NCBI RefSeq assembly: GCF_000002985.6
Contig: NC_003284.9
Location: forward strand, 16,492,001 to 16,556,000
Reading direction: 5' to 3'
Source: Caenorhabditis elegans
Lineage: Eukaryota; Nematoda; Chromadorea; Rhabditida; Rhabditidae
Length of the DNA: 64,000 nt
Under the pieces are notes generated by a model. The model was given only the letters and a program-made list of their open reading frames with translations. It had not been told where the DNA came from and did not search any database. The position numbers were made by a program, and so were the translations under genes. Positions within the stretch are counted from its first letter, which is position 1; every line of letters starts with the position of its first letter. Positions 15,846 to 31,922 of the stretch are shown one piece after another.

Positions 15846-15876
15846 GCCTCGATAGCTCAGTTGGGAGAGCGTACGA

Positions 15877-15890
15877 CACAGGTGATTCGC
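15877..15890 (+). repeat. Left terminal inverted repeat of the 5.1-kb element
   Basis: CACAGGTGATTCGC, exact inverse complement of 21007-21020. Confidence 0.95.
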
Positions 15891-16125
15891 GAGTACGAGT
15901 TTTATGCTTCATCCGAAGTTCGCGCGTGCTTCGAATGGGTACTTGAAAACATAAGCAAAAATGGAGCAAAATGCTCGTCTTTGCGAACAAACTCGAGCAT
16001 AAAGGGCACATTGCGAAAACAATTTATGCTTCCTTTTTTCACTTATTTCAGCTGGAAAATTTTCAAATTTAACTTCAGTTCTCAATAAAATTTATTTAGG
16101 AAAAATTTCAAAAAATGCAAAAAAA

Positions 16126-17294
16126 TTAGATTTTTTCGGGATTTTCCCTCGATCCGCTGTCTCTGCTGCACTCGGTTGCTCTGTAGATGCATTTCCGTGG
16201 CGTTTTCGATTGGCTAATCTGAAATTAAATACATTTTGTTTGAGAAATTTGTTTCGTTTGCGAAAAGTACAATATGAACTGAAAAGTTAAAGGTGGAGTT
16301 AAGAGATTTTGCCATGAATGATAGAAAATGGAATGTAATAATCGAAAAACTGTGAAAATTGGATAACGTTTTTTTAATTTTTTTCCAATTTTGCAAAAAT
16401 AAAAGAAACTTCTGAATTAAATTTGAATTCCCGCCCAATTGAGTGGTTTAGTTTCGAAATTTTTGCGTTTTCTGGCTTAATTCATCAGCTTTTGTTGATT
16501 TTTTCTTTTATATTCGATTTCTTCCTTCCGAGTTATCAAGTTTTCTTTACGAAAAAATATGTTTAAAAACTGACAAACGGTATCTAAACTCAATTATTAA
16601 GCAAAAAATCAAGAAAACATATAAATTTAGCCAGCAAACGCAAAGATCTCAAATAAAGTTATTTATTTGCGCGAGAAATTAAATTTAATTCATCCGTTTC
16701 TTTTATTTTTGTAAAATTGAAAACATTATTCAAGTTTTTTCCAATTATTCAAAGTAATATTCAATCTTTATCGTCTATTTTCTATCTTTGAAACCAAAAT
16801 CCCACATCGACTCTACTCCACCCTTGAACTCCACGAAAATGGAGGTATTTTTGTTTGAACTTTTTAAAAAATGGATACTTAAAAAAAAATTATATACCTT
16901 GGATCCTTTTCGGAGTATCCTCGTCATTCTTATCGATTCGAAAACTTCTCGAATTGTAGTTTTTGGAGTCCAGGGCGTAGTCTTCTGATTGATGCTGAAA
17001 TTATCTGAATCACATAAGAGAAGCATTATGAAAATTATCGGTTTTTCACATACTTTTTCAAAGAAACATGTATTTCTAAAACGAATTCATCAATAACTCT
17101 CAAAGTTTGCTTTTTTTGTGAAAATTTAACTTATCTTTGCTTGATCTTTCCCAGTGGACTTACCGGAAAAGAATTTTTTATTGAATAAGATTATGGAATA
17201 AGAAACTCACTTTAAATAAGAGTCGATTTGTTGAAATTCCGTGGATTTTTGTCGATTCGCATCCGACGCTTCTTGGCGCTAATCGCTCAATTTT
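16126..17294 (-). CDS. Possible small multi-exon gene inside the 5.1-kb element (minus strand)
   Basis: Not recognised. Three minus-strand segments have good splice borders and open frames: 17211-17294 (TTTTCAG before, GTGAGT after; KIERLAPRSVGCESTK...), 16898-16994 (ATTTCAG before, GTATAT after; HQSEDYALDSKNYNSRSF...) and terminal 16126-16218 (AATTTCAG before, stop TAA; ISQSKTPRKCIYRATECS...). An exon using 16860-16800 may lie between the last two. The start exon is uncertain; ATG near 17411 is a candidate. The codon use and borders look like true exons, but joining phases are not all resolved. The product would be basic and Ser-rich. It may be a remnant of an element-encoded protein or a captured host fragment. 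Confidence 0.35.
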
Positions 17295-17985
17295 CTGAAA
17301 AGCTAATATTTGTACGGTCACAAGTCACATTTAAAGCTAAAATATTACCGTTTTTTTTAAGAAATCCTTGAAAACTGAAGCGAATTTCCAATATCGCTGT
17401 GTTCATCCATCGTCTCAGCGCTGCTCGACACGGCGGTCGGTGACTGTTCGGCAATCTTAAATTTTTGAATTATTTTAACATTTATAAGAATTTAAATAAC
17501 AACAAAGTATAATTTCTTGTGTTAACTTGCGAAAAACAGTTGAAAAATTGAGAAAAAGAACGAACATCCGATTTTCATAACAAAAACTTCGATAATTGCG
17601 AAAGAATGGCCGAATAGTACGAATTTCATGATAAATATGAGAAAACTTAAAATTATCGACATTTTTTGTCATGAAAATCGCATAAAATACGAGCGAAATT
17701 GTTTTAAAACATTGAAAAAAGATGAGAAAACGGAAAAATCGTTTAAAAAAATGAATCTGTAAACAACGCGCACCCCGTAATATCGGAGTATCGTTGCCTC
17801 TTTCGCTTGTAAATCGCAGAGTCAATGTTAAAAGCTAGTTCTATACTCTAAAATAAGTGCAACTTGCTCATAAAAATATACAGAAACAATACATTTTAGT
17901 TATTCCCACAATATCAAAGAAGTTCTTGAAAAATTTTTCAAAAAAAGACGTTTTTTCGGTAGAATTTCCAATTTTGAAATTCGAA

Positions 17986-20746
17986 TCATAAGGGTCCCCC
18001 CTTATGGTTGAAAACATTTTCCACCTAAAATTTTTTAGAGAAAATTTTTCAAAAAGTGTTTAGATTTATAGAAAAAAGACAAATTTGTTAGTTTCCACAA
18101 GTCTGAACATTCATATTACATTTTCAGTCGAACAAACATCTAAATTAGAGTTGATTGAGCATATAACAGTCTTACTTTCAGAGACTTATAATTTGGTTGG
18201 CGTTTGAATTAATAGAATGTGGTCAACTAAAGAGTTGTTGACAATAATACAAAGAACATTTTGTCAGTTGGTATCTTTTTGTTATCTTTAGTGACTGTGG
18301 AGATGTGAGCCCCAAAAGATGACCAAAATATTCTAGATCTGTTCTCAACTATATCTCGGTTCTCGATATAGATGAAAAGATGCTTATAATAATGAAAACG
18401 TTCATTGTGTTAAGCTTGACAAGGTTGTAGTTGATGACTTTTTGATACCTCGCCTCTAAAATGAGATGCATATGTTTTAAGAAAGCAGGTTTTATTGTTC
18501 AGAGCCCCAAGAAATGTCGGTTTGACATCGAAAGCACCTAATTTGACAAGAAAATGTATAGAGACAACAAAGTAAGCATATTTATACAATTTCTTATAAA
18601 TATTTGATAATTTTTGAAAAAAAAAAATTTTGATTTTTTCGAAAAGAAAATTCAAAGTTGAAAATATGAAAAACTTATGAAAAACTTTAAATTTTTTTCA
18701 AAATTTTTTTTTGAAAATTGTTCAAAACTTGATTGCATCTTATAAAGAAATGCAAAATTTGCGGTTTTTTTTAGTTTGGATGTTCAGAGCACGACTTCAG
18801 ATAAAAATCTGAGGTAAAGTAGAATTTCTATGCTCAAAAAACGTATTCACTTCAGATGCTTATATCTCCGTGGAAAAAATTTTTATAATTAAGTGATTAA
18901 CTACAAAGTTGTTTATTTTAATTTAGAGAACAATTTTGCAGTTGACCGTTTGTTGCCAAAAAAATTGTTGGTTGAGATATGAACGGAAAGAGAAGAAGAA
19001 AATACAAGCATAAAGGTGCCCAACTTTACACAACTTTATCTCGACCAAAAAATTTTTTGACAAAAACCGGTCAACTACAAAGTTGTTTTTTAAATTAGGA
19101 TAAACAACTTTGTAGTTAATCACTTGATCATGAAAATTTTTTCCGCGGAGATATAAGCATCCGAAGTCAATACGTTTTTTGAGCATAGTGGTTCTATTAT
19201 ACCTCAATTTTGCATCTCAAACTTGTTTTTGAATATTCAAATGGAAGAAACATCACATTTTGACGGTTCTATAACATCTGGTCAGTTTTTAGAAAGTTTT
19301 CGAAAAACATTTTTTTTCGATATTTTGAAAAAAAAATCCAAAGGGTATGAAATTATGAAATGAACCTTATGAAAATTTTAAAAAATTTTTTCGAAATTTT
19401 TTTTCTTAAAACTTCTCAAATTTTTATTAGATGTTATACAAAATTGCAATATTTGTTGTCTTTTTGAGTTTGGATGTTCAGCACACAAGCTTAGACAAAA
19501 ACCGGAGGTATAGTAGAACTCTTATGTTTAAAAATCGCATTCACTTTGTATGCTTATATCTTAGTGGAAAAAATTTTTATGGCAAAGTAATCAACTACAA
19601 AGTTGTTTATCTTAATCAAAAATACAACTTTGTAGTTGATCATTTTTTATCAAAAAAATTGGTGGTTGAGATAAAGTTGTGAGAAGTGCCGCAACTTCAT
19701 GCTTGTATTTTCTTTCTCTTTCTCTCTGTATATCTCAACCACCGAATTTTTTGATAAAAAACAATTAACTACAAAGTTGTACTTTAACTCAAGATAAACA
19801 ACTTTGTAGTTAATCACTTTGTCATAATAATTTTTTCCACGGAGATATAAGCATTCGAAGTGAATGCCTTTTTTGAACTTAGAGGTTCTACTAAGCCTCA
19901 GGTGTTCGTCTGAAATCGTGTTCTGAATGTTCAAACTGAAAAAAAACAACCGACATTGCATTTTTCTGAAAGATCTGATCGTATTTTGAAAAGTTTTCAA
20001 AAAACAATTTCGTACAAATTTTTGAAAATGTTCATAAGGGGGGACCCTTATAATTTTCAAAGCGGATCATAAGGGGGGACCCTTATGAATTTCAAAAATC
20101 CAAAAAAATTTTTTTTTGAAAACTTGCTTTTAAATCATTAGATACAGTAGTAAATGATATTTACTCTATTTGTGTCAATTTAAACGTTAGGCAGAAAATT
20201 TTTAGCTGAGAAAACGATTATTCCTTGTAGGGTTCAAAAAATAGTATAGGTTTTTGAAGCTGTGAGCATCCTTGGGCATACAAGATATCAAAAAACGATC
20301 AACTACAAATTTGTTTAGCTAGTTATGGAAAACGTTTTAAAAATAAAAAATGTTTCCTATATGTGTAATGTGCCAAAATATGGCTTGTCGAAGTCAGTGC
20401 TGTTTTGCTCTTACTCAACTGTGTCCACCTTCTCGAACATGCAAGATAGAAAAATATGGTCAACTAATAACTTGTTGTTCAGTTCATTTCTAACAACTTT
20501 TCAGTTGAAGAAAGTTTTGTATTTCACGTCTCAAGGAAGTTAGGAGCTCTCAAACATACTATGTTTCAATGACCCAACTCTAGACTTTCCATGATTTCTT
20601 GGCTGAACATTCATTGTGAACTCTCACACTTGTAGAAAATATCAAACTGATCAGTTTCTACACGTGCAACATGTTTTCGAAAAAATTTTCAAAACAAAAA
20701 AATTTCATCAAAAATTTTATATCATAAGGGGGGACCCTTATGATTT
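17986..20746. repeat. Nested 2.8-kb foldback element with ATAAGGGTCCCCCCTTAT palindromes
   Basis: The palindrome CATAAGGGTCCCCCCTTATG occurs at about 17988 and inverted copies occur at about 20034, 20069 and 20723. Between them, blocks with CAACTACAAAGTTGTTTA and GGAGATATAAGCAT are repeated in both orientations (18850-18910, 19070-19150, 19570-19640, 19770-19850). The order left-to-right is mirrored right-to-left around about 19.3 kb, so the segment could form a very long hairpin. The ORFs inside are byproducts of the repeats. Confidence 0.7.
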
Positions 20747-21006
20747 TCGAAATCTGACAAGTTCCTTCTAAATCGAGAGTTTTGTTTTTCAAAAACGTTA
20801 GTATCAGCAAAAAAACAGTCAATAAACAGAGAACTCAAACAAAAATAGCTTTAAACTAACTGAAATGAGCACTTTAGTGATGGGAATAACGGCCAAACAA
20901 AATGCGCACATTGCGAGCGTTCGCATTGTGCCCTTTATGCTTGCCACTGTGGCGCACATTTTCGCAAACACGAGCATTGTGTGCGTCGAAGCATTTTGCT
21001 TACACT

Positions 21007-21020
21007 GCGAATCACCTGTG
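21007..21020 (-). repeat. Right terminal inverted repeat of the 5.1-kb element
   Basis: GCGAATCACCTGTG, followed directly by the CGA duplication and the tRNA 3' part. Confidence 0.95.
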
Positions 21021-21065
21021 CGACTGAAGATCGTAAAGTCACCAGTTCGATCCTGGTTCGGGGCA

Positions 21066-22394: not shown

Positions 22395-22406
22395 GCCTCG
22401 ATAGCT

Positions 22407-22425
22407 CACAGTTGATTTGCGGTTC
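22407..22425 (+). repeat. Left terminal inverted repeat of the 8.4-kb element
   Basis: CACAGTTGATTTGCGGTTC, followed by a further 13 bp that match the right end with two mismatches. Confidence 0.95.
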
Positions 22426-23564
22426 ACGTATTATTCGTATACGCGTTCAATTCGCGTATAAATCATGTATCGCGAAACGAATATTTGAGACACAAAAAAA
22501 ATTCGTTGAAAATACGCGTATAACGAAAAAATGCGACCATTTTCGGGATACGCGTATAATTCGCGAATTAATCAGGAATAACGAAAGAGAGTCATTCAAA
22601 TCAATAAATTATTTTATTAATTATTTTTTGCCCTTTTTTAAGTAATTTTTTTGTTTTTTAAGTAATTTTTTCCTATTTTTGTTCAATAATATTGTCAATA
22701 TTGTATTTTTTCTCAAGTTTATGCAGAAATAGTCGAGATAATCAATGATTTTGGGAAAATGTTCCCCTTTTAATGATTTCCAAGAAGAAGGAACACACTT
22801 TTTGAGGATTCCTGCTTAATTAGAGTTCAGAAAATTAGTACAATAGTTTCTAAATTATACAGTTAAAGAATATTTTCTAGACTTTCCCAAAAAATAACTT
22901 TGAAAATGTTTAATGTGCCTTTAAAGCTTCGATATTACTGTACAGAATCAGTGAGAACTTTTTGAATTCCTTTAATTAATTTTTTTTCGAAACTACAGTA
23001 ACCTTTTTGAAAATTTAAAAATCAAAACTAAATTCTACTTTCAAGGTGACAGCAAACCTGGAAAATTCGAAAAAAATAGATAAATTTTCGAGTTCTGAAT
23101 CTGAACCAGGGATGTGCAAAAAATTGACAAATTCGCCGAGCGGTCGATGGCAAAATTTGCTAGGGTTACTGTAGCTTCGAAAAGAAAAAAAATTTGATTT
23201 TCTCATTCTTTTCGTTTTCATCACTTTCCCGGAATAATTGTTATTATATTTTCGATGAATGGGAGAAGAGAAGCAAACCAAGAGATAATAAAACAATAAT
23301 AAATGTCAAGATGCGAGAGTTCTTGCCGAATCCGTACAGTAATCTTAAAGGTGCATACTTGAAAAATCATTTAAAAATTCGATACGAGCGTCGAGACCCG
23401 TTCATCCAAATGTTCCTTCTTCTCAAAAAAACCCATTGAAATCCAAACCGAAATTTTCTGCATTGTAGAAAGGGAAAGTTATAATATTAAACACATTGAA
23501 TATCACTGACATATGCAAATAGTAGGAGTTTATCAGAGTACCGTATACTTTAAAGTGTACAAGG

Positions 23565-26500
23565 ATGCCTCGTACCAGCTTCAGAGACTTCGATCCGGAT
23601 AGACGAGAAAGATTAGGTATATATTTGTGATCATGTTCACTATTTTTGAGAATAATTTTTTGTAGAATCAGAAAATGATGTGGCAGTGAATGAAAACGAA
23701 GCATCGAATCAGATCTATGCAGATGAAGACGAGCTTGAGCTGGATGATATGATGGTCGATAATATAGACACCAATTCTATGGATGGTGATGAGGAAGCAG
23801 ATGCCAATCGTATCAATGACATTGAGGATATGATGTTGGACGATGACCTTGGTGATGTAGCTGAAGAAATGGACATGGGAGACGATGACCAGATTGATTA
23901 TCCAGTGGACGAATTACTTGAATTTGGTGATTCAGGTGACGTCGAAGAGGCAGCTTCCGGTACGTGTAAAAAACCTAGGAAATGAATTTAAAGTGTTACT
24001 CTCAGAAATGAGACAAATGCTTAGAGATGCTTCAACTCCAGCCCTTCTTCATGTTGCTTCAGCTTGTGTGTCACGCTATTCAAATCTAGGTTAAAAATCA
24101 CAAAAAAATGTATTTATTTCAAAAAAATTTAGCATTCAAACGGTCTTTGTTATCCCTCGATGAATCGGTGGCCGAGTCTGCAAATTCAATATGGACATAT
24201 AATAAAAACAATTTTTCCACACATCATTTCTGCAACAAATGTGGAAAAGTTGCACAAAATTCTAAGAAATGGTAATTTCTATTTATCAATCAACTTCTTG
24301 CCTTGGTAAATTTTGAAGATTAGTACAATATCTGAAAGTCTCTTTGATATTTCACAATTTCGTTGAAAAATTCCTTTTTTTTTGAAAATCAAAAATCCAA
24401 AAAAACTTAGAATTTTTTAAAAATCGAACATCCAAAAATTTCGAAGAATTTTTAGTATTTGAGAATCCAAATAATTTTTTAAAAATCGAACATCCAAAAA
24501 TTTCGAATAATTTTTAGTATTTGAAAATCCAAATAATTTTCAGAATTTTTTAAAAATCGAACATCCAAAAATTTCGAATAATTTTTAGAATTTTTTAAAA
24601 ATCGAACATCCAAAAATTTCGAATAATTTTTAGTATTTGAAAATCCAAATAATTTTTTTAATTTTTTAAAAATCGAACATCCAAAAATTTTTTTAGAAAT
24701 AAGGAAAATAATTGAAAAGTTTTTTGGAAATTGAAAATCCCAAATGTTTCAATGATAACGTTTTGAAAATGAAAATTTCTCGAGGCAAGAAGTTGGTTAT
24801 TTGGAAACTTTTGAAAATGCAAAAATTACCAATTCAGCAAATATTGTGGTGGTCCTGTTGCCTCCTTTGTCCGGGTTGGAGCGTTTACCCAAATTGTAGA
24901 GCTCGTCGAAACTTACATGGATGACATTCTGGAGCTACGGGAACAGCTGAAAAATGATCGAAATCTTGAACATAACCTGGCTAGTCCATTTTTCTCTAGT
25001 TTCCGAGAAACTGAATCTCCGAATCGTCTTCGTCTGTCCTTGGTCGTATCGATTGACGGAGTGCGCATTTCTGGAAATAAGAAGTTGGTTTCGCATTTAG
25101 AAAAAATATTCATTTGAGTATTTTAATTTCTAGGAAGCTTTGGCCAGTCAGTTACATCATCGTTGATCTGCCAACTGGACTGATGCAGAAGTCTACAAAC
25201 ATTGTACTAGGTGGAATTGTAGAGTGTAGTGAAAATCCAACTACAACTCTGTGGAATGCACTTATTCCGTTCATACTATCTGATGTAGAATCACATTCTG
25301 GAAAAGTCAGAAATACATCATTCACTTGCCACATTCGAACATGCTCAGCCGATCAGCCCGTAAGTAGTATCTTTCTTTGATGACAACTGTGTTCGTAGTG
25401 TCAATTACTACTTATATTCGAAATTAAAAACGGTGATTTCAGGCAAAGCGGGCTTTCTTTGGTTTCATGGCACATCAGTCGGCAGAGTCATGTTTTTTTT
25501 GTATGTCGCCAGGAACTTTGTACAAGTTTGGTGATCGAAAACGCCGTGAGGAACGCCCAGGATATGAAACAATCGTAGATTCAGAGCAGGGTGTGCATGG
25601 TTTTGGTCCAATTCCAGCAAAAATTGTTCCCCACGTTCTCCCATACAATACACCAATTGATATTTTGCACAACTTGGGAGAGGGAATCTATACATTCATT
25701 AGAAAAGGTGATATCTGAATCAGGGGTGCGCGGCAAATTGATTTGTCGACAAATTCGGCAATTCGGCAATTTGCCGATTTGCCAGATATTAGAATTTTGG
25801 CAATTTGCCCATTTGCCGATTTGCCGGAAATTTCAATTCCGGCAATTTGCTCATTTGCCGGACAAAATGGTTTGCCGTCTACCCCTGATCTGAATCATTC
25901 AAAACGCGAAAATATATGCTTTGCTTACAGAGTTGTTGTTGTCCGAATTCAAAAAGATCAAGCCTAGATCACCTCTTTTTTCGAACAATAATGGAGTCCT
26001 CAAAGAAGCATTTCGAAAAGTTGTACTGCATTCAAACTTTACAAACGTGGAAGCATGTCGGAATGGAACGGACAAGACTAATGTAACAGAAGGCTAGGAA
26101 TATAATTTATATAAAATTTAATTGCAGTTCTTTCGAATGGTCATCTGCTTAGTTGCTCTGAGCTTCGACATTCTTTCTCCTGAGGCCCGGGTTGTTATTG
26201 TAGGACTAGGAATGCTGGGAAATGAGATGTATACGAACTCGAAAGCCTCTTGTTTGTTTGAGCAGCAAATGGCAGCCGGTGCAGCATGGTTTCTGTTCGA
26301 AGCTAACGTAGAGTATCTTTCCATCAAAGCTCATGTATGTTTATCGATTTAAGTACTTTTCAAAAGCATACAAATTTAGGAAGTACTTTTTCATCTGCCA
26401 GAAATTAATGAGTTGTTCGGTAATACTGGATCACTCTCAACATTTTCATTCGAAAGCTTTTATCAATTTGCTCTTTGTGGATACAGTAGCCGTACGACCC

Positions 26501-27175
26501 GCAGTTTTGTTCAGAACGCGTCGACTAAGTCAGTTTTCAATCTTTAAAAAATGAAGTTTGTGAAATGTATGATTTAGGGTACTACTTCATACAAGCATCA
26601 GACGGGAAATCGCATTTCGAGTAATCAACGAACCCACCACAGCTCTGCAAAAGTTTGTGGCATTGACGCCGGATATTGTACCAGTTAGATCTACATGGAA
26701 GAATGAAATCAAGAATTTGACACCTGACGATGCGACAAAAGCAGTACCCGGTTGTAAATATTATTCGAAATTGGCCACGGCGCTTGGAAATTTGGAATCC
26801 GAGTACTTTTCTTCCACCTCTCGTAGTGATATGTTTTTTGCTCAATCGAAAAACGGAAAGTCGTGTTATAGATTTATTGCTTTCATGGTTAAGCAAGGCG
26901 TTTCGGCGATTCTAGCAGAGCCTGTCGCGTCGGTTGATGACGACGAGAAATTTGGCAGTTTTGGAAAAGTGAAAGATTTGCTGACAAGCAACGACTATTA
27001 TTATGCGATGGATGTCCACCGGCTTCTGAAATCGTACGACGGAATTCAGAACGGACGTCTTTCAGGAGAGCGGGTCGTATTGCCATTGGACGCTATGACC
27101 GGAGTGGCTTGCTATATTCACACTGATAATTCTACTATTTTTCTACAAGCTAATGGATCATTCCTTCATAATTGA
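23565..27175 (+). CDS. CACTA/CMC-type DDE transposase, about 803 aa, 11 exons
   Basis: Exons: 23565-23616, 23666-23959, 24006-24089, 24133-24271, 24838-25083, 25134-25359, 25443-25707, 25931-26082, 26128-26334, 26380-26528, 26578-27175, all in phase (2412 nt). The N-terminus is strongly acidic (about residues 20-115). A zinc ribbon FCNKCGKVAQNSKKCKYC crosses the fourth junction. The catalytic core starts with VVSIDGVRISGNKKLWPV, the first Asp followed by the family's Trp-Pro; then HQSAESCFFC gives the conserved Cys pair; then LPYNTPIDILHNLGEGI, the Pro-Asp-x-x-His segment. Near the C-terminus LPEINELFGNTGSLSTFSFE fits the HLpE...G.l..fS.E pattern of CACTA transposases. It would cut and paste the element whose ends flank it. 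Superfamily assignment is from these motifs, not from a search. Confidence 0.82.
24395..24690 (+). repeat. Intronic tandem repeat in the transposase gene
   Basis: Five copies of AAAAATCGAACATCCAAAAA followed by TTTCGAATAATTTTTAG and GTATTTGAAAATCCAAATAA. It expands the intron 24272-24837. Confidence 0.85.
25723..25892. repeat. CGGCAAATT foldback in a transposase intron
   Basis: Bounded by CAGGGGTGCGCGGCAAATTG and the inverse-like GTCTACCCCTGA, and filled with GGCAATTTGCC-type palindromes. A longer relative lies in osm-1 at 57769-58187. It lies in the intron 25708-25930. Confidence 0.75.
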
Positions 27176-27482
27176 CCAAAAAAATATATATAAACATTTT
27201 TACACTATATTGTGAAAAATTCTAGTTATTATCAAAACATGAAGAAGTTGGCAACCACATCACTATTTTTTTTGAACTGAACTTTTTAAAAGTAACTTTT
27301 TTTCAGCACAAAAGCAAATCTCCGGGAAAAAGAACTGATTATCAATGTGAAAGTGCTCCTACTGTACAGAAATCTACTCAGATCCAAAGCTCTACCTCTA
27401 TGTCGACTTATGCTCATACTTTTTTTTCTTGAATTTGCCTTTGCTTATTTTTTGGTAAGTTGGTTATAGACACATTTTACAG

Positions 27483-30295
27483 ATGCTTCCTCCAACCTCT
27501 CCAATGCAGTCGATGACAACACCTAAGAGACCATCGCCGGCGGTGCAAAGACAAAATTCGTCTCCTTACCAGCGCCCACCATCTAAACCAGCTCGAAAAT
27601 CGGTCAAAAACGAAGGATCTCAACCAAGTCGTCCTGAAAGACGACAAACGCAAGCAAACCGTTCTTCACAGAATTCGACCATCACCGAGCAGGCCAACCA
27701 ATTCAGATATGAAAATCGTGCTGCAACTTCTGAAAGACCGCCAAGTCCCCAATTCTCGAATCAACATCACGATGCCACTAACGCGATGCCCATAGTCTAC
27801 CAGGAGACTCAACTGCATGCTACCAAGGGAGGAAAGTGGTCCCCGATTGGATTCGCAGCAACTCAGCTGTTCGATTGTCAACGTGGAGTTCCTTTTGACA
27901 GGGACACTTGTGAGGTAAGAGACTTGAATTACATTGGAACAAAAAGCATTGAAAATTCTGCTCCAAAAAAATTCTAAAAATTTTTTGGATTTTCATTTTT
28001 AAAAACTCTAATTTTTTTTTGGATTTTTGATTACAAAAAAAAACTAAATTTTCTTTAAAAAATTCTTTAAAATTTTTGGATTTTTTTTTCTAGAAATTCT
28101 ATTCTTTTTTTTTGGATTTTTGATTACAAAAAAAAACAAAAATTTCTTTAAAAAATTCTAAAAATTTCTGGATTTTCATTTCGAAAAACTTTTTTTTTTG
28201 GATGTTTAATTGCAAAAAAACTAAGTTTCCTTTTAAAAAAACTTAAAATTTTTGTATTTTTGATGTTTAAAAAATTCTAAAAATTTTTAGATTATTTTTT
28301 TCTAGAAATGTTTTTTTTTGGATTTTTGATTACAAAAAAAAAACTAAATTTTCTTTAAAAAATTCTAAAAATTTTTGGATTTTCATTTCTAAAATCTCTA
28401 ATTTTTTTTTGGATTTTTGATTGCTAAAAAACTAAATTTTCTATTAAAAAAATTTAAAATTTTTGTATTTTTGATGTTTAAAAAATTCTAAAAATTTTTA
28501 GATTATTTTTTTCTAGAAATGCTTTTTTTTTGGATTTTTGATTACAAAAAAAACTAAATTTTCTTCCAAAAATTCTTTAAAATTTTTGGATTTTTTTTCT
28601 AGAAATTCTATTCTTTTTTTTTTGGATTTTTGATTGATAAAAAACTAAATTTCTATTAAAAAATTCTAAAAATCAAAAGTTCTAAAGGCTTTGAGAGACA
28701 CACAATTTCTTTGTATTTGAACTTTTCAGAGAAGTTTCATGCAATTGGTCAGAAACAAAAAAGATGTGGAATTTTTTTTTTCAGCTTGCTTTGGGACTAG
28801 CATTTGTCGCCGGCAAGGTAACTTTTTGATAGTTTTAAAAATTCAATATTTATTTTTAGGGAAACAGAAACCAAGAGCCCAAACCGGAAAACCTTGAAGA
28901 AACGGTATTAAATTGGATATCGAACATGTTTATTCTAGTTAATTTTAAGGTGGCTAAAACGACTATTCCGAATATTGGATTTTCAGTCGACACGGCGAAA
29001 AAATGCGACGCTAACTTGGTTCTTCCGAGTCAACGTTACTTCAAAATTTCGGAAGCCTTAAAGCCAGGAGAAATCGGAGGAGCCACGTCTTCAAAATTCG
29101 TCAGCCACACTAGAAAATTGGCTAGAAAGATGTTTGACAAAGTAAAAGAAAATTGAAGTCAACATAGATATGCATACTTTTTTTTAGATCGATAAAGTGA
29201 ACGACTTGATGATTTGCTATGCGGCTACTTCATCATCGACATCGAAAAAGTACAATGTGATCAACGATCAATTCTTCATCAAACTCGCCGGTAAAATGGA
29301 ACAATTTCCCTAATTTTCAAAATGAAACTTAATTTTAGATTTCTTCATTCACGGATTCGGCCAAAAACCAACGGGAGATCGAAGAGAATTCGTCAAAAAT
29401 TTGCTCGTCGAAGTGATGCACAACAAATTGTTAGTGGAAATTTACGATCTAGTCAACCATAAAGTATTTTTTTTAACAGGAATCGCATTCGAAATCGCTA
29501 CAATCAAGAAAAAGGTGCAAACAAAAGTGAGGAGGCGGGAAAATGGATGCAAATGGAGCTCAAAAAGGAAAATTGCGGAGAACTAGTGAGGTTGGTAATT
29601 TTTTTTCAATTCCTGATTTTTTAAATAAAAAAAAACTCACGATTGTTGAGCCTGGTGTCCTTTTCCTATCCCGAATCCAACACCAAAACCTGAAATTTTG
29701 GCGGAGAGAACCAGAGTGGTCATGTGCTCGAACTAACCGCGGTTCCTACTCGGCTCCAACTCGGCTCCTTCGTGCTGCAACAAAATTTTGTGTAAATCGA
29801 TTTATTGAAAAAAAAATGAAAAAAATAAAACGGAAATTATCAATAAATTTACAAAAAAAGGGAGAAAAAAAAAAAAACTAAAATGTCAGAAAGCAGAAAT
29901 CTGTGTGTGCAACTTGCCGCCGCGGTGTTTGCGTACTTGCACACCGTAGTTTCTGTTTTTTTAAAGAAACAAGTCTAGATTAATAAAAAATAATTAAAAG
30001 TACGAGGATTTAAAACTTTTACATTCAAATCGGAAAGAATACATTACAATAATGGCAGAAAAAATAATCAAGTGAATTTAGAAGAAAAAAAAACACTTTT
30101 TTACTGAATATTATTCGAACTTTTGATTACAGAACACGGCTGCAACTTCCATCTGCAAGCAATGACGTTTGGGACGATGAAGATGTGGAAAACGATGCCT
30201 TCGAAACACCAGTTCGAGAAGAATATCGACGTGAAAAAGAAAATGAGCATCCACGAAGTGTGGAGCCTGAGGAGCCGGATGATATGATGGATTAG
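27483..30295 (+). CDS. Second gene of the 8.4-kb element, unknown protein of about 404 aa
   Basis: Not recognised. Exons: 27483-27914, 28785-28817, 28860-29141, 29188-29290, 29339-29429, 29480-29590, 30133-30295, in phase (1215 nt). The first 115 residues are Pro/Ser/Arg/Gln-rich and disordered (SPAVQRQNSSPYQRPPSKPA). A more structured middle (SKFVSHTRKLARKMFDKIDK, VNDLMICYAA, REFVKNLLVEVMHNKLNRIR) is helical and basic, suggesting a DNA-binding or oligomerising domain. The C-terminus is acidic (EEPDDMMD). The start is unsure: a splice acceptor sits directly before ATG 27483, and an upstream exon (about 27306-27453, ending before GTAAGT) stays open in phase. By position it parallels the accessory protein of plant CACTA elements, which binds subterminal repeats; that role is inference. 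Confidence 0.65.
27975..28680 (+). repeat. Intronic tandem repeat in the second element gene
   Basis: Repeated TTTTGGATTTTTGATTACAA and ACTAAATTTTCTTTAAAAAA blocks, about seven diverged copies, filling the intron 27915-28784. It resembles the 24.4-kb intronic repeat in base composition and its ATCCAAAAA words. Confidence 0.8.
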
Positions 30296-30759
30296 GGGAT
30301 TTAATACAATTTTTTTCATATTTTTTTACATATTTTTCTACTTCCCTTGTTACGAATTGTTTTTTTTGTTGTTCTTTCACACATTTCCTTTCTCTGTGTG
30401 CCTTCTGAAATGCCTCCATCGAGCCTTGCCTGTGCCATTATTATTCGTTGTTATGTTTTTCTTACTAATAAACTCATCCTATGATTCAATATTGAAGAAC
30501 AATGTTATGGGAAAAATTGCTATTCATGAACAATTTCCTCGAAATTTTCAATTTATTCGCGAATCCCGAACAAATTATCGGAAAATACATCAATTATACG
30601 TTATTTGTACACGAATCCCGAAAAAAACCTTCGGGATACGCGATTTATTCGCGAATTGTACATGTGTGTTCGGGATACGCGTATAACACACGTACAATAC
30701 ACATGTTAGCGGGTACTCGAATAATGAGCGCGCGAAGAATTTTTTAACGAATAATTCGC

Positions 30760-30778
30760 GAACCGCAAATCAACTGTG
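30760..30778 (-). repeat. Right terminal inverted repeat of the 8.4-kb element
   Basis: GAACCGCAAATCAACTGTG, followed by the CT duplication and the tRNA remainder. Confidence 0.95.
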
Positions 30779-30780
30779 CT

Positions 30781-31922
30781 CAGTTGGGAGAGCGTACGAC
30801 TGAAGATCGTAAGGTCACCAGTTCGATCCTGGTTCGGGGCATTTCTTTTTTGTTTTCTTTTTCTCAACTAGACCAATTTTTATCCATCATTTATAAACAT
30901 GAGTCGGTGTGATCTGAAAATCACTTATAGTAGTTTTTCTTGGGGTAGTATTTCTAAAATAAAAATAAGATTAAGATATCACGTTGAACTTAGAAACCGG
31001 ACTTGATAAGAATATTTTCAAACTACCGGGTGGGCTATAAAATGTGATCCAAGTGAATTTTTTTCTTCTTTCGTGCTTTTGTCTTCATTTTTCTTAATTC
31101 AAATTGGACGAAAGTGCAATTTTTCTCCCGTTTGGATTGAGAAAAAAAGAACAAGAGAGGAAAATGAGGAAAAATAACTTGGTTAACTTCATTATAGAAA
31201 AACTTAATAACTGGTAAAAAAGGAAAAAAATATCCGTAGGAAAAAAATTTGAAACCAGTAATAGTAAACAATGAAATTTATTTTTGGAATTTGCTCATCA
31301 TTTCAATAAAACTGTCATAGCTTGAATTAGGGTCGACAACCATGCCTCGATAGCTCAGTTGGGAGAGCGTACGACTGAAGATCGTAAGGTCACCAGTTCG
31401 ATCCTGGTTCGGGGCATTTCTTTTTTGTTTTCTTTTTCTCAACTAGATCAATTTTTATCCATCATTTATAAACATGAGTCGGTGTGATCTGAAAATCACT
31501 TATAGTAGTTTTTCTTGGGGTGGTAGTATTTCTAAAATAAAAATAAGATTAAGATATCACGTTGAACTTAGAAACCGGACTTGATAAGAATATTTTCAAA
31601 CTACCGGGTGGGCTATAAAATGTGATCCAAGTGAATTTTTTTCTTCTTTCGTGCTTTTGTCTTCATTTTTCTTAATTCAAATTGGACGAAAGTGCAATTT
31701 TTCTCCCGTTTGGATTGAGAAAAAAAAGAACAAGAGAGGAAAATGGGGAAAAATAACTTGGTTAACTTCATTATAGAAAAACTTAATAACTGGTAAAAAA
31801 GGAAAAAAATATCCGTAGGAAAAAAATTTGAAACCAGTAACAGTAAACAATGAAATTTATTTTTGGAATTTGCTCATCATTTCAATAAAACTGTCATAGC
31901 TTGAATTAGGGTCGACAACCAT
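30781..31922 (+). repeat. Tandem duplication of a tRNA-Phe unit, 579 bp
   Basis: The sequence from the tRNA 3' part at 30781 through 31343 is repeated at 31360-31922 with only a handful of differences (for example GGGGTAGTATT versus GGGGTGGTAGTATT, and ATGAGG versus ATGGGG). Each unit ends in GGGTCGACAACCAT just before the next tRNA start. About 99% identity indicates a recent event. Confidence 0.95.
31344..31416 (+). tRNA. tRNA-Phe (GAA)
   Basis: Intact 73-nt gene with A box TAGCTCAGTTGG, loop CTGAAGA (anticodon GAA), B box GTTCGATCC and a downstream TTTCTTTTTT terminator. It lies in the tandem duplication. Confidence 0.96.

What the first reader, a model, noticed from the sequence alone, without database searches (positions are those of the whole stretch)
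22395..30841. 8.4-kb two-gene CACTA-like transposon sitting exactly inside a tRNA-Phe gene
Seen: 12 + 61 nt of tRNA rejoin perfectly when the 8372-bp insert and one CT are removed. The insert has 19-bp perfect inverted ends starting CACAG and encodes an intact-looking DDE transposase. Known: CACTA/CMC elements have CAC ends and 2-3 bp duplications. Some DNA transposon families (such as Dada) target small-RNA genes, but I know of no such CACTA-type lineage in nematodes.
Basis: partly seen in the sequence, partly recalled or inferred. Interest (0 to 1): 0.92.

Follow-up and report, generated by a model that had tools for sequence, protein, structure and literature searches.

The report
Jumping gene that invades tRNA genes
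An 8.4-kb worm transposon of the Mirage group sits inside a phenylalanine tRNA gene, and many of its relatives in the same genome also sit in tRNA genes, which suggests a DNA transposon lineage that prefers genes read by RNA polymerase III.

Summary
The genome is C. elegans (contig lengths; recalled). The element encodes an apparently intact 803-aa DDE transposase (Pfam DUF1258, Mirage group of the CMC superfamily) and a 404-aa protein of no known family.
Genome-wide, 12 of 33 paired elements with such ends (12 of 26 without one MITE type) lie at an A-box/B-box tRNA-type site; random control sites gave 0 of 3000. ARAGORN names Phe, Met, Glu, Ala, Val and Gly tRNAs. One further element lies between two inverted 5S genes, and some lie in repeats that I read as tRNA-like. 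The distant relative MIRAGE1 (0 of 8 scored) and the MITEs (0 of 7) lie elsewhere. So this is a divergent Mirage lineage with a Pol III-gene insertion bias, convergent with Dada but with mostly 2-3 bp duplications. Recruitment by TFIIIC/TFIIIB is my favoured mechanism; it is inferred. I found no report of it in the open papers I searched.

The parts
22395..22406 (+). 5' 12 nt of the interrupted tRNA-Phe(GAA) gene; last 2 nt are the left CT duplication
22407..30778 (+). Element 1, 8372-bp Mirage-group transposon, apparently autonomous
22407..22425 (+). left 19-bp terminal inverted repeat CACAGTTGATTTGCGGTTC
23565..27175 (+). gene 1: DDE transposase, 803 aa, 11 exons (23565-23616, 23666-23959, 24006-24089, 24133-24271, 24838-25083, 25134-25359, 25443-25707, 25931-26082, 26128-26334, 26380-26528, 26578-27175); D263, D345, C364-x2-C367, H555-x4-H560, E580
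   Evidence: splice sites predicted by reading, no transcript seen
27483..30295 (+). gene 2: 404-aa protein of unknown family, 7 exons (27483-27914, 28785-28817, 28860-29141, 29188-29290, 29339-29429, 29480-29590, 30133-30295)
   Evidence: splice sites predicted by reading
30760..30778 (-). right 19-bp terminal inverted repeat
30779..30841 (+). right CT duplication (30779-30780) and 3' 61 nt of the tRNA-Phe gene (30781-30841)
15846..15876 (+). 5' 31 nt of a second interrupted tRNA-Phe gene, ending in the left CGA duplication
15877..21020 (+). Element 2, 5144-bp related element with no match to ORF1 or ORF2 in translated search (probably non-autonomous), ends CACAGGTGATTCGC...GCGAATCACCTGTG
21021..21065 (+). 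right CGA duplication and 3' 42 nt of the second interrupted tRNA-Phe gene
31343..31417 (+). intact tRNA-Phe in a tandem copy of the unit: the empty-site paralogue of element 1

Best explanation
Element 1 is a structurally intact, apparently autonomous cut-and-paste transposon of a CACAG-ended lineage of the Mirage group (CMC superfamily) that prefers to insert in Pol III genes with internal promoters, above all tRNA genes. SHOWN: a transposase reading frame with the CMC signature; 2-3 bp duplications; related elements in tRNA genes of several isotypes; no such bias in the MIRAGE1 copies and the one MITE type scored. READ BY EYE: decayed tRNA sites, tRNA-like repeats. INFERRED: the transposase-end complex is brought to the target by the Pol III preassembly complex (TFIIIC on the A and B boxes, or TFIIIB), not by a fixed target word; the scored tRNA insertions fall from nt 3 to nt 48, none in the T arm that carries the B box, and share little sequence. 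Insertion into one of many redundant tRNA copies would cost the host little. The confidence given is for the insertion bias; for tethering alone I would say about 0.5.
For: Ends were found by terminal sequence only, without looking at flanks, and paired. ARAGORN at default finds a tRNA across the rejoined site in 7 of 33 pairs against 0 of 1500 control sites. An A-box plus B-box score of 17 or more is reached by 12 of 33 pairs: 12 of 26 apart from one MITE type, 0 of 7 of that type; 0 of 8 MIRAGE1-type copies and 0 of 3000 control sites reach it. In 11 of the 12 the insertion lies between the start of the A box and the B box; in L053 it lies 4 nt before the A box. Further, by inspection: L043 a tRNA-Arg(CCT), L084 a perfect A box, L079 and L039 in 11- and 21-copy repeats with A/B-box-like sequence (scores 16 and 15), L044 and L117 (one end each) in a 12-copy repeat with tRNA-like boxes, L094 between two inverted 5S rRNA genes (Rfam 75.5 and 71 bits). 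Of 29 unpaired ends given to (two of them, L060 and L075, repeat paired elements), 6 have a near-perfect box within 60 bp where about 4% is expected; L108 is also an Rfam tRNA. A second DUF1258 element (X:16.06 Mb, transposase 39-55% identical in its main pieces) has a B-box-like sequence 2 bp from its one end found (L078).
Against: The bias is not absolute: of 26 pairs outside the MITE type, 8 (L057, L058, L083, L086, L087, L091, L092, L093) show no Pol III target, nor does the single end L041; 23 of the 29 unpaired ends show no strong box. Rfam found nothing at E up to 1 in the two empty copies of the tRNA-like repeats searched (L118, L119), so that reading rests on boxes seen by eye. L094 has inverted 5S copies on both sides and no duplication, so it is not a simple split gene. 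L100 lies 12 bp upstream of an intact tRNA; L079 lies downstream of its B box; L053 and L089 lack an exact duplication. A weak common sequence at the insertion points cannot be excluded (20-column information 5.48 bits against 3.95 +/- 0.75 for random offsets, fraction 0.03, 13 sites). No direct evidence for any host factor; no wild-isolate empty site could be checked.
Confidence: 0.85

Rival explanations
1. Dada-like sequence recognition: the transposase or the second protein reads a short degenerate word common in tRNA genes (A box, anticodon stem) without help from Pol III factors.
For: Three copies with element 1's ends lie at nt 12-15 in the A box (A1_win, L042, L040) while the scored copies of other families, L053 apart, lie at nt 28-48, as Dada families cluster at nt 8-13 and the anticodon region (PMC8869645 section 4.2); weak excess of information at the insertion points.
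Against: Duplicated letters differ from copy to copy (CT, GCA, AGT, AT; CGA, GGA, TG, GA, AAA, CGAC) and no common word is evident by eye. Dada was reported to read the primary sequence and makes 6-7 bp duplications.
Confidence: 0.3
2. Survivor bias: insertion is random, but copies persist only in redundant tRNA genes.
For: tRNA genes are multicopy, so a hit is tolerated.
Against: MIRAGE1 copies and the MITE type with similar ends persist at sites without a tRNA-type score in the same genome, and so do 8 of the 26 other pairs; tRNA genes are a tiny part of the genome (well under 0.1%, recalled), so tolerance alone would hardly give 12 of 33.
Confidence: 0.04
3. The bias is for open chromatin, R-loops or hairpin-forming DNA, of which tRNA and 5S genes are only the richest source.
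For: Several elements lie between inverted copies of their flank (L083, L091, L094, and part of L042), and tRNA genes can form hairpins.
Against: Not tested against other open sites here. The inverted repeats include element sequence as well as flank in L042, L091 and L094, so they were probably made after insertion.
Confidence: 0.12
4. Coincidence: an ordinary random-target transposon that landed once in a tRNA gene.
For: None beyond the original single site.
Against: 12 of 33 pairs at tRNA-type sites against 0 of 3000 control sites.
Confidence: 0.01

Closest known systems
MIRAGE1 (C. elegans, CMC-Mirage; identified here as the 5.6-kb, 7-copy DUF1258 family from its copy number and the description in PMC5395297, seen as passages)
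   Same: DUF1258 match, two genes reported for MIRAGE1, 2-bp duplications, inverted ends
   Different: Ends CTCAGATAAACTGGAGTCACGG; transposase 21-23% identical in the longer aligned piece; no ORF2 similarity found in the 5.9 kb read (which lacks the last 0.7 kb of that copy); 0 of 8 scored copies (six full length, two shorter) at tRNA-type sites
Dada superfamily (fish, Perkinsus and others)
   Same: DDE DNA transposons inside tRNA and 5S rRNA genes, at the A box or the anticodon region
   Different: 6-7 bp duplications, a C/DxxH-type transposase, each lineage tied to a primary sequence
Plant-type CACTA/EnSpm
   Same: CMC superfamily, short ends beginning CAC, 2-3 bp duplications
   Different: Ends are CACAG not CACTA; no Transposase_21 match at E up to 1; no Pol III bias known to me
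Ty1, Ty3, Tj1, TRE5/TRE3 retrotransposons
   Same: Integrate at Pol III genes, several of them also at 5S; tethering by TFIIIB, TFIIIC or Pol III subunits shown for some (PMC5911963, passages)
   Different: Retroelements, and they insert beside the gene, not inside it

Membership tests
Mirage group (CMC superfamily) | DUF1258 domain (equated with Mirage in PMC3985635, passages) | tested here: met
   ORF1 residues 159-411, E 2.6e-130, full profile 1-253
Mirage group (CMC superfamily) | DDE triad with C(2)C and H(3-4)H between second D and E (PMC12730594 passages) | tested here: met
   D263, D345, C364/C367, H555/H560, E580, picked by motif order; D, D, CxxC, both H and E also read in the X:16.06 Mb relative. 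No structure or activity tested.
Mirage group (CMC superfamily) | 5'-CA..TG-3' ends and 2-5 bp duplications (stated for the wider CMCT clade) | tested here: met
   CACAG...CTGTG; duplications of 2 or 3 and once 4 bp where present; no duplication found in some pairs
MIRAGE1 family | MIRAGE1 ends and close transposase | tested here: not met
   Different ends; no DNA match between the two in the lists (40 of 1141 candidates scored); 21-23% identity
Dada | Insertion inside multicopy small RNA genes | tested here: met
Dada | 6-7 bp duplications | tested here: not met
   2 or 3 bp, once 4
Dada | One primary target sequence per family | tested here: inconclusive
   Varied sites; weak excess information, fraction 0.03
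CACTA/EnSpm (plant type) | CACTA ends and Transposase_21 (PF02992) | tested here: not met
   CACAG ends; no PF02992 match at E up to 1
Pol III-targeting elements by host-factor tethering | Physical link to TFIIIB, TFIIIC or Pol III | not testable with these tools
   no interaction data

The most novel reading that the evidence does not exclude
A cut-and-paste DDE transposon lineage that finds its target through the Pol III transcription complex itself, inserting inside tRNA, 5S and SINE-like genes between or beside their A and B boxes regardless of primary sequence: a DNA-transposon counterpart of Ty1/Ty3/TRE5 that arose within the Mirage group in the line leading to C. elegans.
Probability: 0.4. 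Interest if true: 0.88.

Novelty: new variant of a known kind. Interest (0 to 1): 0.74.

Why it matters
In the papers I saw, a preference of DNA transposons for small-RNA genes is described only for Dada. A second, unrelated superfamily doing the same in a genetic model, with 2-3 bp duplications and little target sequence, would show that the Pol III gene is a convergent safe haven and would let host-factor tethering of a cut-and-paste transposase be tested with worm genetics. It also accounts for some broken tRNA genes in this genome.

Tried and rejected
(1) ARAGORN with loosened thresholds: at 85% and 75% the control rate climbs to 41 and 538 of 1500, so only the default result was counted; a mixed-flank control (14 of 150) is not a valid null because the flanks are themselves tRNA halves. 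(2) The first genome pattern was too short to mean anything. (3) No T-arm insertion among the 12 scored sites (nt 3-48) would have probability (48/72)^12, about 0.008, under uniform insertion; this is hand arithmetic and was noticed after the fact, so it is not pressed. (4) The second protein looked by eye a little like a BEN domain; Pfam gave no support, so no name is given. ORF2 has no match in the 9.5 kb read of the X:16.06 Mb element, whose right end was not found, or in 5.9 kb of a MIRAGE1 copy, so it is not obviously the targeting factor. (5) Plant CACTA and Dada filing rejected as in the membership test. (7) Rfam microRNA matches in elements are far below their cut-offs and were ignored. 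(8) Not examined: 5 of the 58 hits (3 mismatches each) and 5 of the 86 were never fetched. Several 3-mismatch hits have no partner end and are probably chance. Left out of the pair count: the repeated ends of L074; left out: L046, L061, L065, L077, four of six L074 ends and the inner ends in L042 and L091. Two MIRAGE1-type copies (II:2266811, X:9249) dropped out of the score because an end was too decayed; V:19259 was fetched at one end only. (9) The split into 26 and 7 pairs was made after seeing the flanks, so the Fisher values are post hoc.
Full report
WHAT IS THERE. Contig lengths (15072434, 15279421, 13783801, 17493829, 20924180, 17718942; total 100286401) equal those of the C. elegans N2 reference as I recall them; the window is C6:16492001-16556000, which would be chromosome X. 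At 22407-30778 lies an 8372-bp element whose outer 19 bp are perfect inverted repeats. It splits a tRNA-Phe(GAA) gene after nucleotide 12 and repeats the two bases CT; removing element and one CT restores the 73-nt gene, which ARAGORN recognises and which matches the intact tandem copy at 31343. The break lies inside the A box, TAGCT|CAGTTGG.

A SECOND ELEMENT IN THE WINDOW. At 15877-21020 a 5144-bp element with ends CACAGGTGATTCGC splits another tRNA-Phe gene after nucleotide 31, with a CGA duplication; the two split genes are 1.3 kb apart. It has no match to either protein of element 1 in translated search and is probably non-autonomous. ARAGORN sees four intact tRNA-Phe genes in the window.

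GENES. I assembled gene 1 by hand with GT-AG introns: 803 aa, no internal stop. It matches Pfam DUF1258 over the whole profile (E 2.6e-130). DUF1258 is the Mirage group of transposases according to PMC3985635 (passages seen). The CMC signature of PMC12730594 (passages) is present: D263, D345, C364-x2-C367, H555-x4-H560, E580, chosen by alignment and motif order, not by structure. Gene 2 gives 404 aa with no Pfam, NCBIfam or PDB match worth naming. Transcripts were not available.

THE FAMILY. The 19-mer has 58 matches at up to 3 mismatches (reversed control 7); CACAGGTGATTCGCG at up to 1 mismatch has 86 (control 0). I paired facing ends into 33 elements by terminal sequence. Six are 212-244-bp MITEs of one type, and I grouped the 238-bp L048 with them; the other 26 range from 188 to 8372 bp and include some short ones. 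DUF1258 matches lie in three CACAG-ended places (this one, X:1.69 Mb, X:16.06 Mb) and seven of MIRAGE1 type. The X:16.06 Mb transposase is 39-55% identical to ours in its main aligned pieces.

TARGETS. Copies with element 1's own ends: tRNA-Phe (this one), tRNA-Met (IV:60708, L040, initiator by my reading) and tRNA-Glu (X:1691142, L042) by ARAGORN; tRNA-Arg (X:1755205, L043) by my reading and loosened ARAGORN; a 21-copy repeat that I read as tRNA-like (III:7470698, L039); a 12-copy repeat likewise (V:8688466, L044, one end); unknown (IV:11219613, L041, one end). Other families: tRNA-Phe (element 2), tRNA-Ala (L085), tRNA-Val (L089), tRNA-Gly (L098/99) by ARAGORN; further A+B-box sites L047, L053, L088, L096, L097; L084 with a perfect A box only; L079 in an 11-copy A/B-box repeat; L094 between two inverted 5S rRNA genes; L100 12 bp upstream of a tRNA. 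No Pol III target was seen at L057, L058, L083, L086, L087, L091, L092 and L093. The strict count is 12 of 33 pairs, or 12 of 26 outside the MITE type, against 0 of 7 MITEs, 0 of 8 MIRAGE1-type copies and 0 of 3000 control sites (post hoc Fisher p 0.0014 against MITEs plus MIRAGE1, 0.03 against MIRAGE1 alone). The control sites come from about 50 kb only (eight 3-kb loci and window 32500-59000, where ARAGORN finds no tRNA), so they measure false positives of the score, not the genome's tRNA density. The wider count, with my own readings (L043, L084, L079, L039, L094), is 17 of 26, or 18 with L100. Rfam did not support the tRNA-like repeats (L118, L119).

CONTROL LINEAGE. A 5.6-kb, near-identical DUF1258 family with ends CTCAGATAAACTGGAGTCACGG fits the description of MIRAGE1 in PMC5395297 (two ORFs, six full-length copies; passages). 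Its scored flanks have no tRNA-type boxes and mostly 2-bp duplications. So the bias belongs to the CACAG lineage, not to the Mirage group as a whole.

HOW IT PROBABLY WORKS. The transposase pairs the ends, cuts the element out and joins it to a target with a 2-3 bp stagger (established for DDE enzymes; inferred here from the duplications). Target choice is what needs explaining. Positions from nt 3 to 48, several isotypes and little shared sequence point to the Pol III complex rather than to a word; the A-box cluster of element 1's own family and the fraction of 0.03 leave room for sequence reading as in Dada (PMC8869645, introduction and section 4.2 read). I give tethering about 0.5, sequence reading 0.3.

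LITERATURE. Searches of open PMC papers listed nothing that, by title or start of abstract, describes Mirage or CACTA elements in tRNA genes; most listed papers were not opened. The main texts of PMC5850821 and PMC12239620 do not contain the word tRNA. PMC7337890 (passages) reports no excess of new Mu or P insertions at tRNA genes. Subscription journals and Repbase Reports were not searchable, so a prior note there is possible.

VERDICT. A real and well-supported insertion bias of a Mirage-group lineage for Pol III genes; new as a combination as far as I could search, convergent with Dada.

Noticed in passing
L042 1-592/1494-2085; L083 40-351/4090-4401; L091 33-2065/6568-8601; L094 1-420/1130-1547: Several elements carry inverted copies of the same flank (98-100% identical), mostly together with element sequence, as if one end and its flank had been copied in inverted orientation after insertion, perhaps by hairpin or fold-back repair of a transposase cut.
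   Followed up: partly
   Followed up: no
L073, L080, L081, L082, L090, L095: 212-244-bp MITEs with ends such as CACAGGTGATTCGCCGTTTGTAAAAT share about the outer 14 bp with the tRNA-inserting families but show no tRNA-type site.
   Followed up: partly
L118, L119, L120: Three multicopy repeats (12, 11 and 21 matches) with A-box- and B-box-like sequences by eye, perhaps tRNA-derived SINEs, each hit by one or two of these elements; no Rfam match in L118 and L119.
   Followed up: partly
window 30778-31080 and 31343-31658: Tandem duplication of the tRNA-Phe unit, apparently older than the insertion of element 1.
   Followed up: partly
window 24411-24690: Imperfect direct repeats in an intron of the transposase gene.
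   Followed up: no
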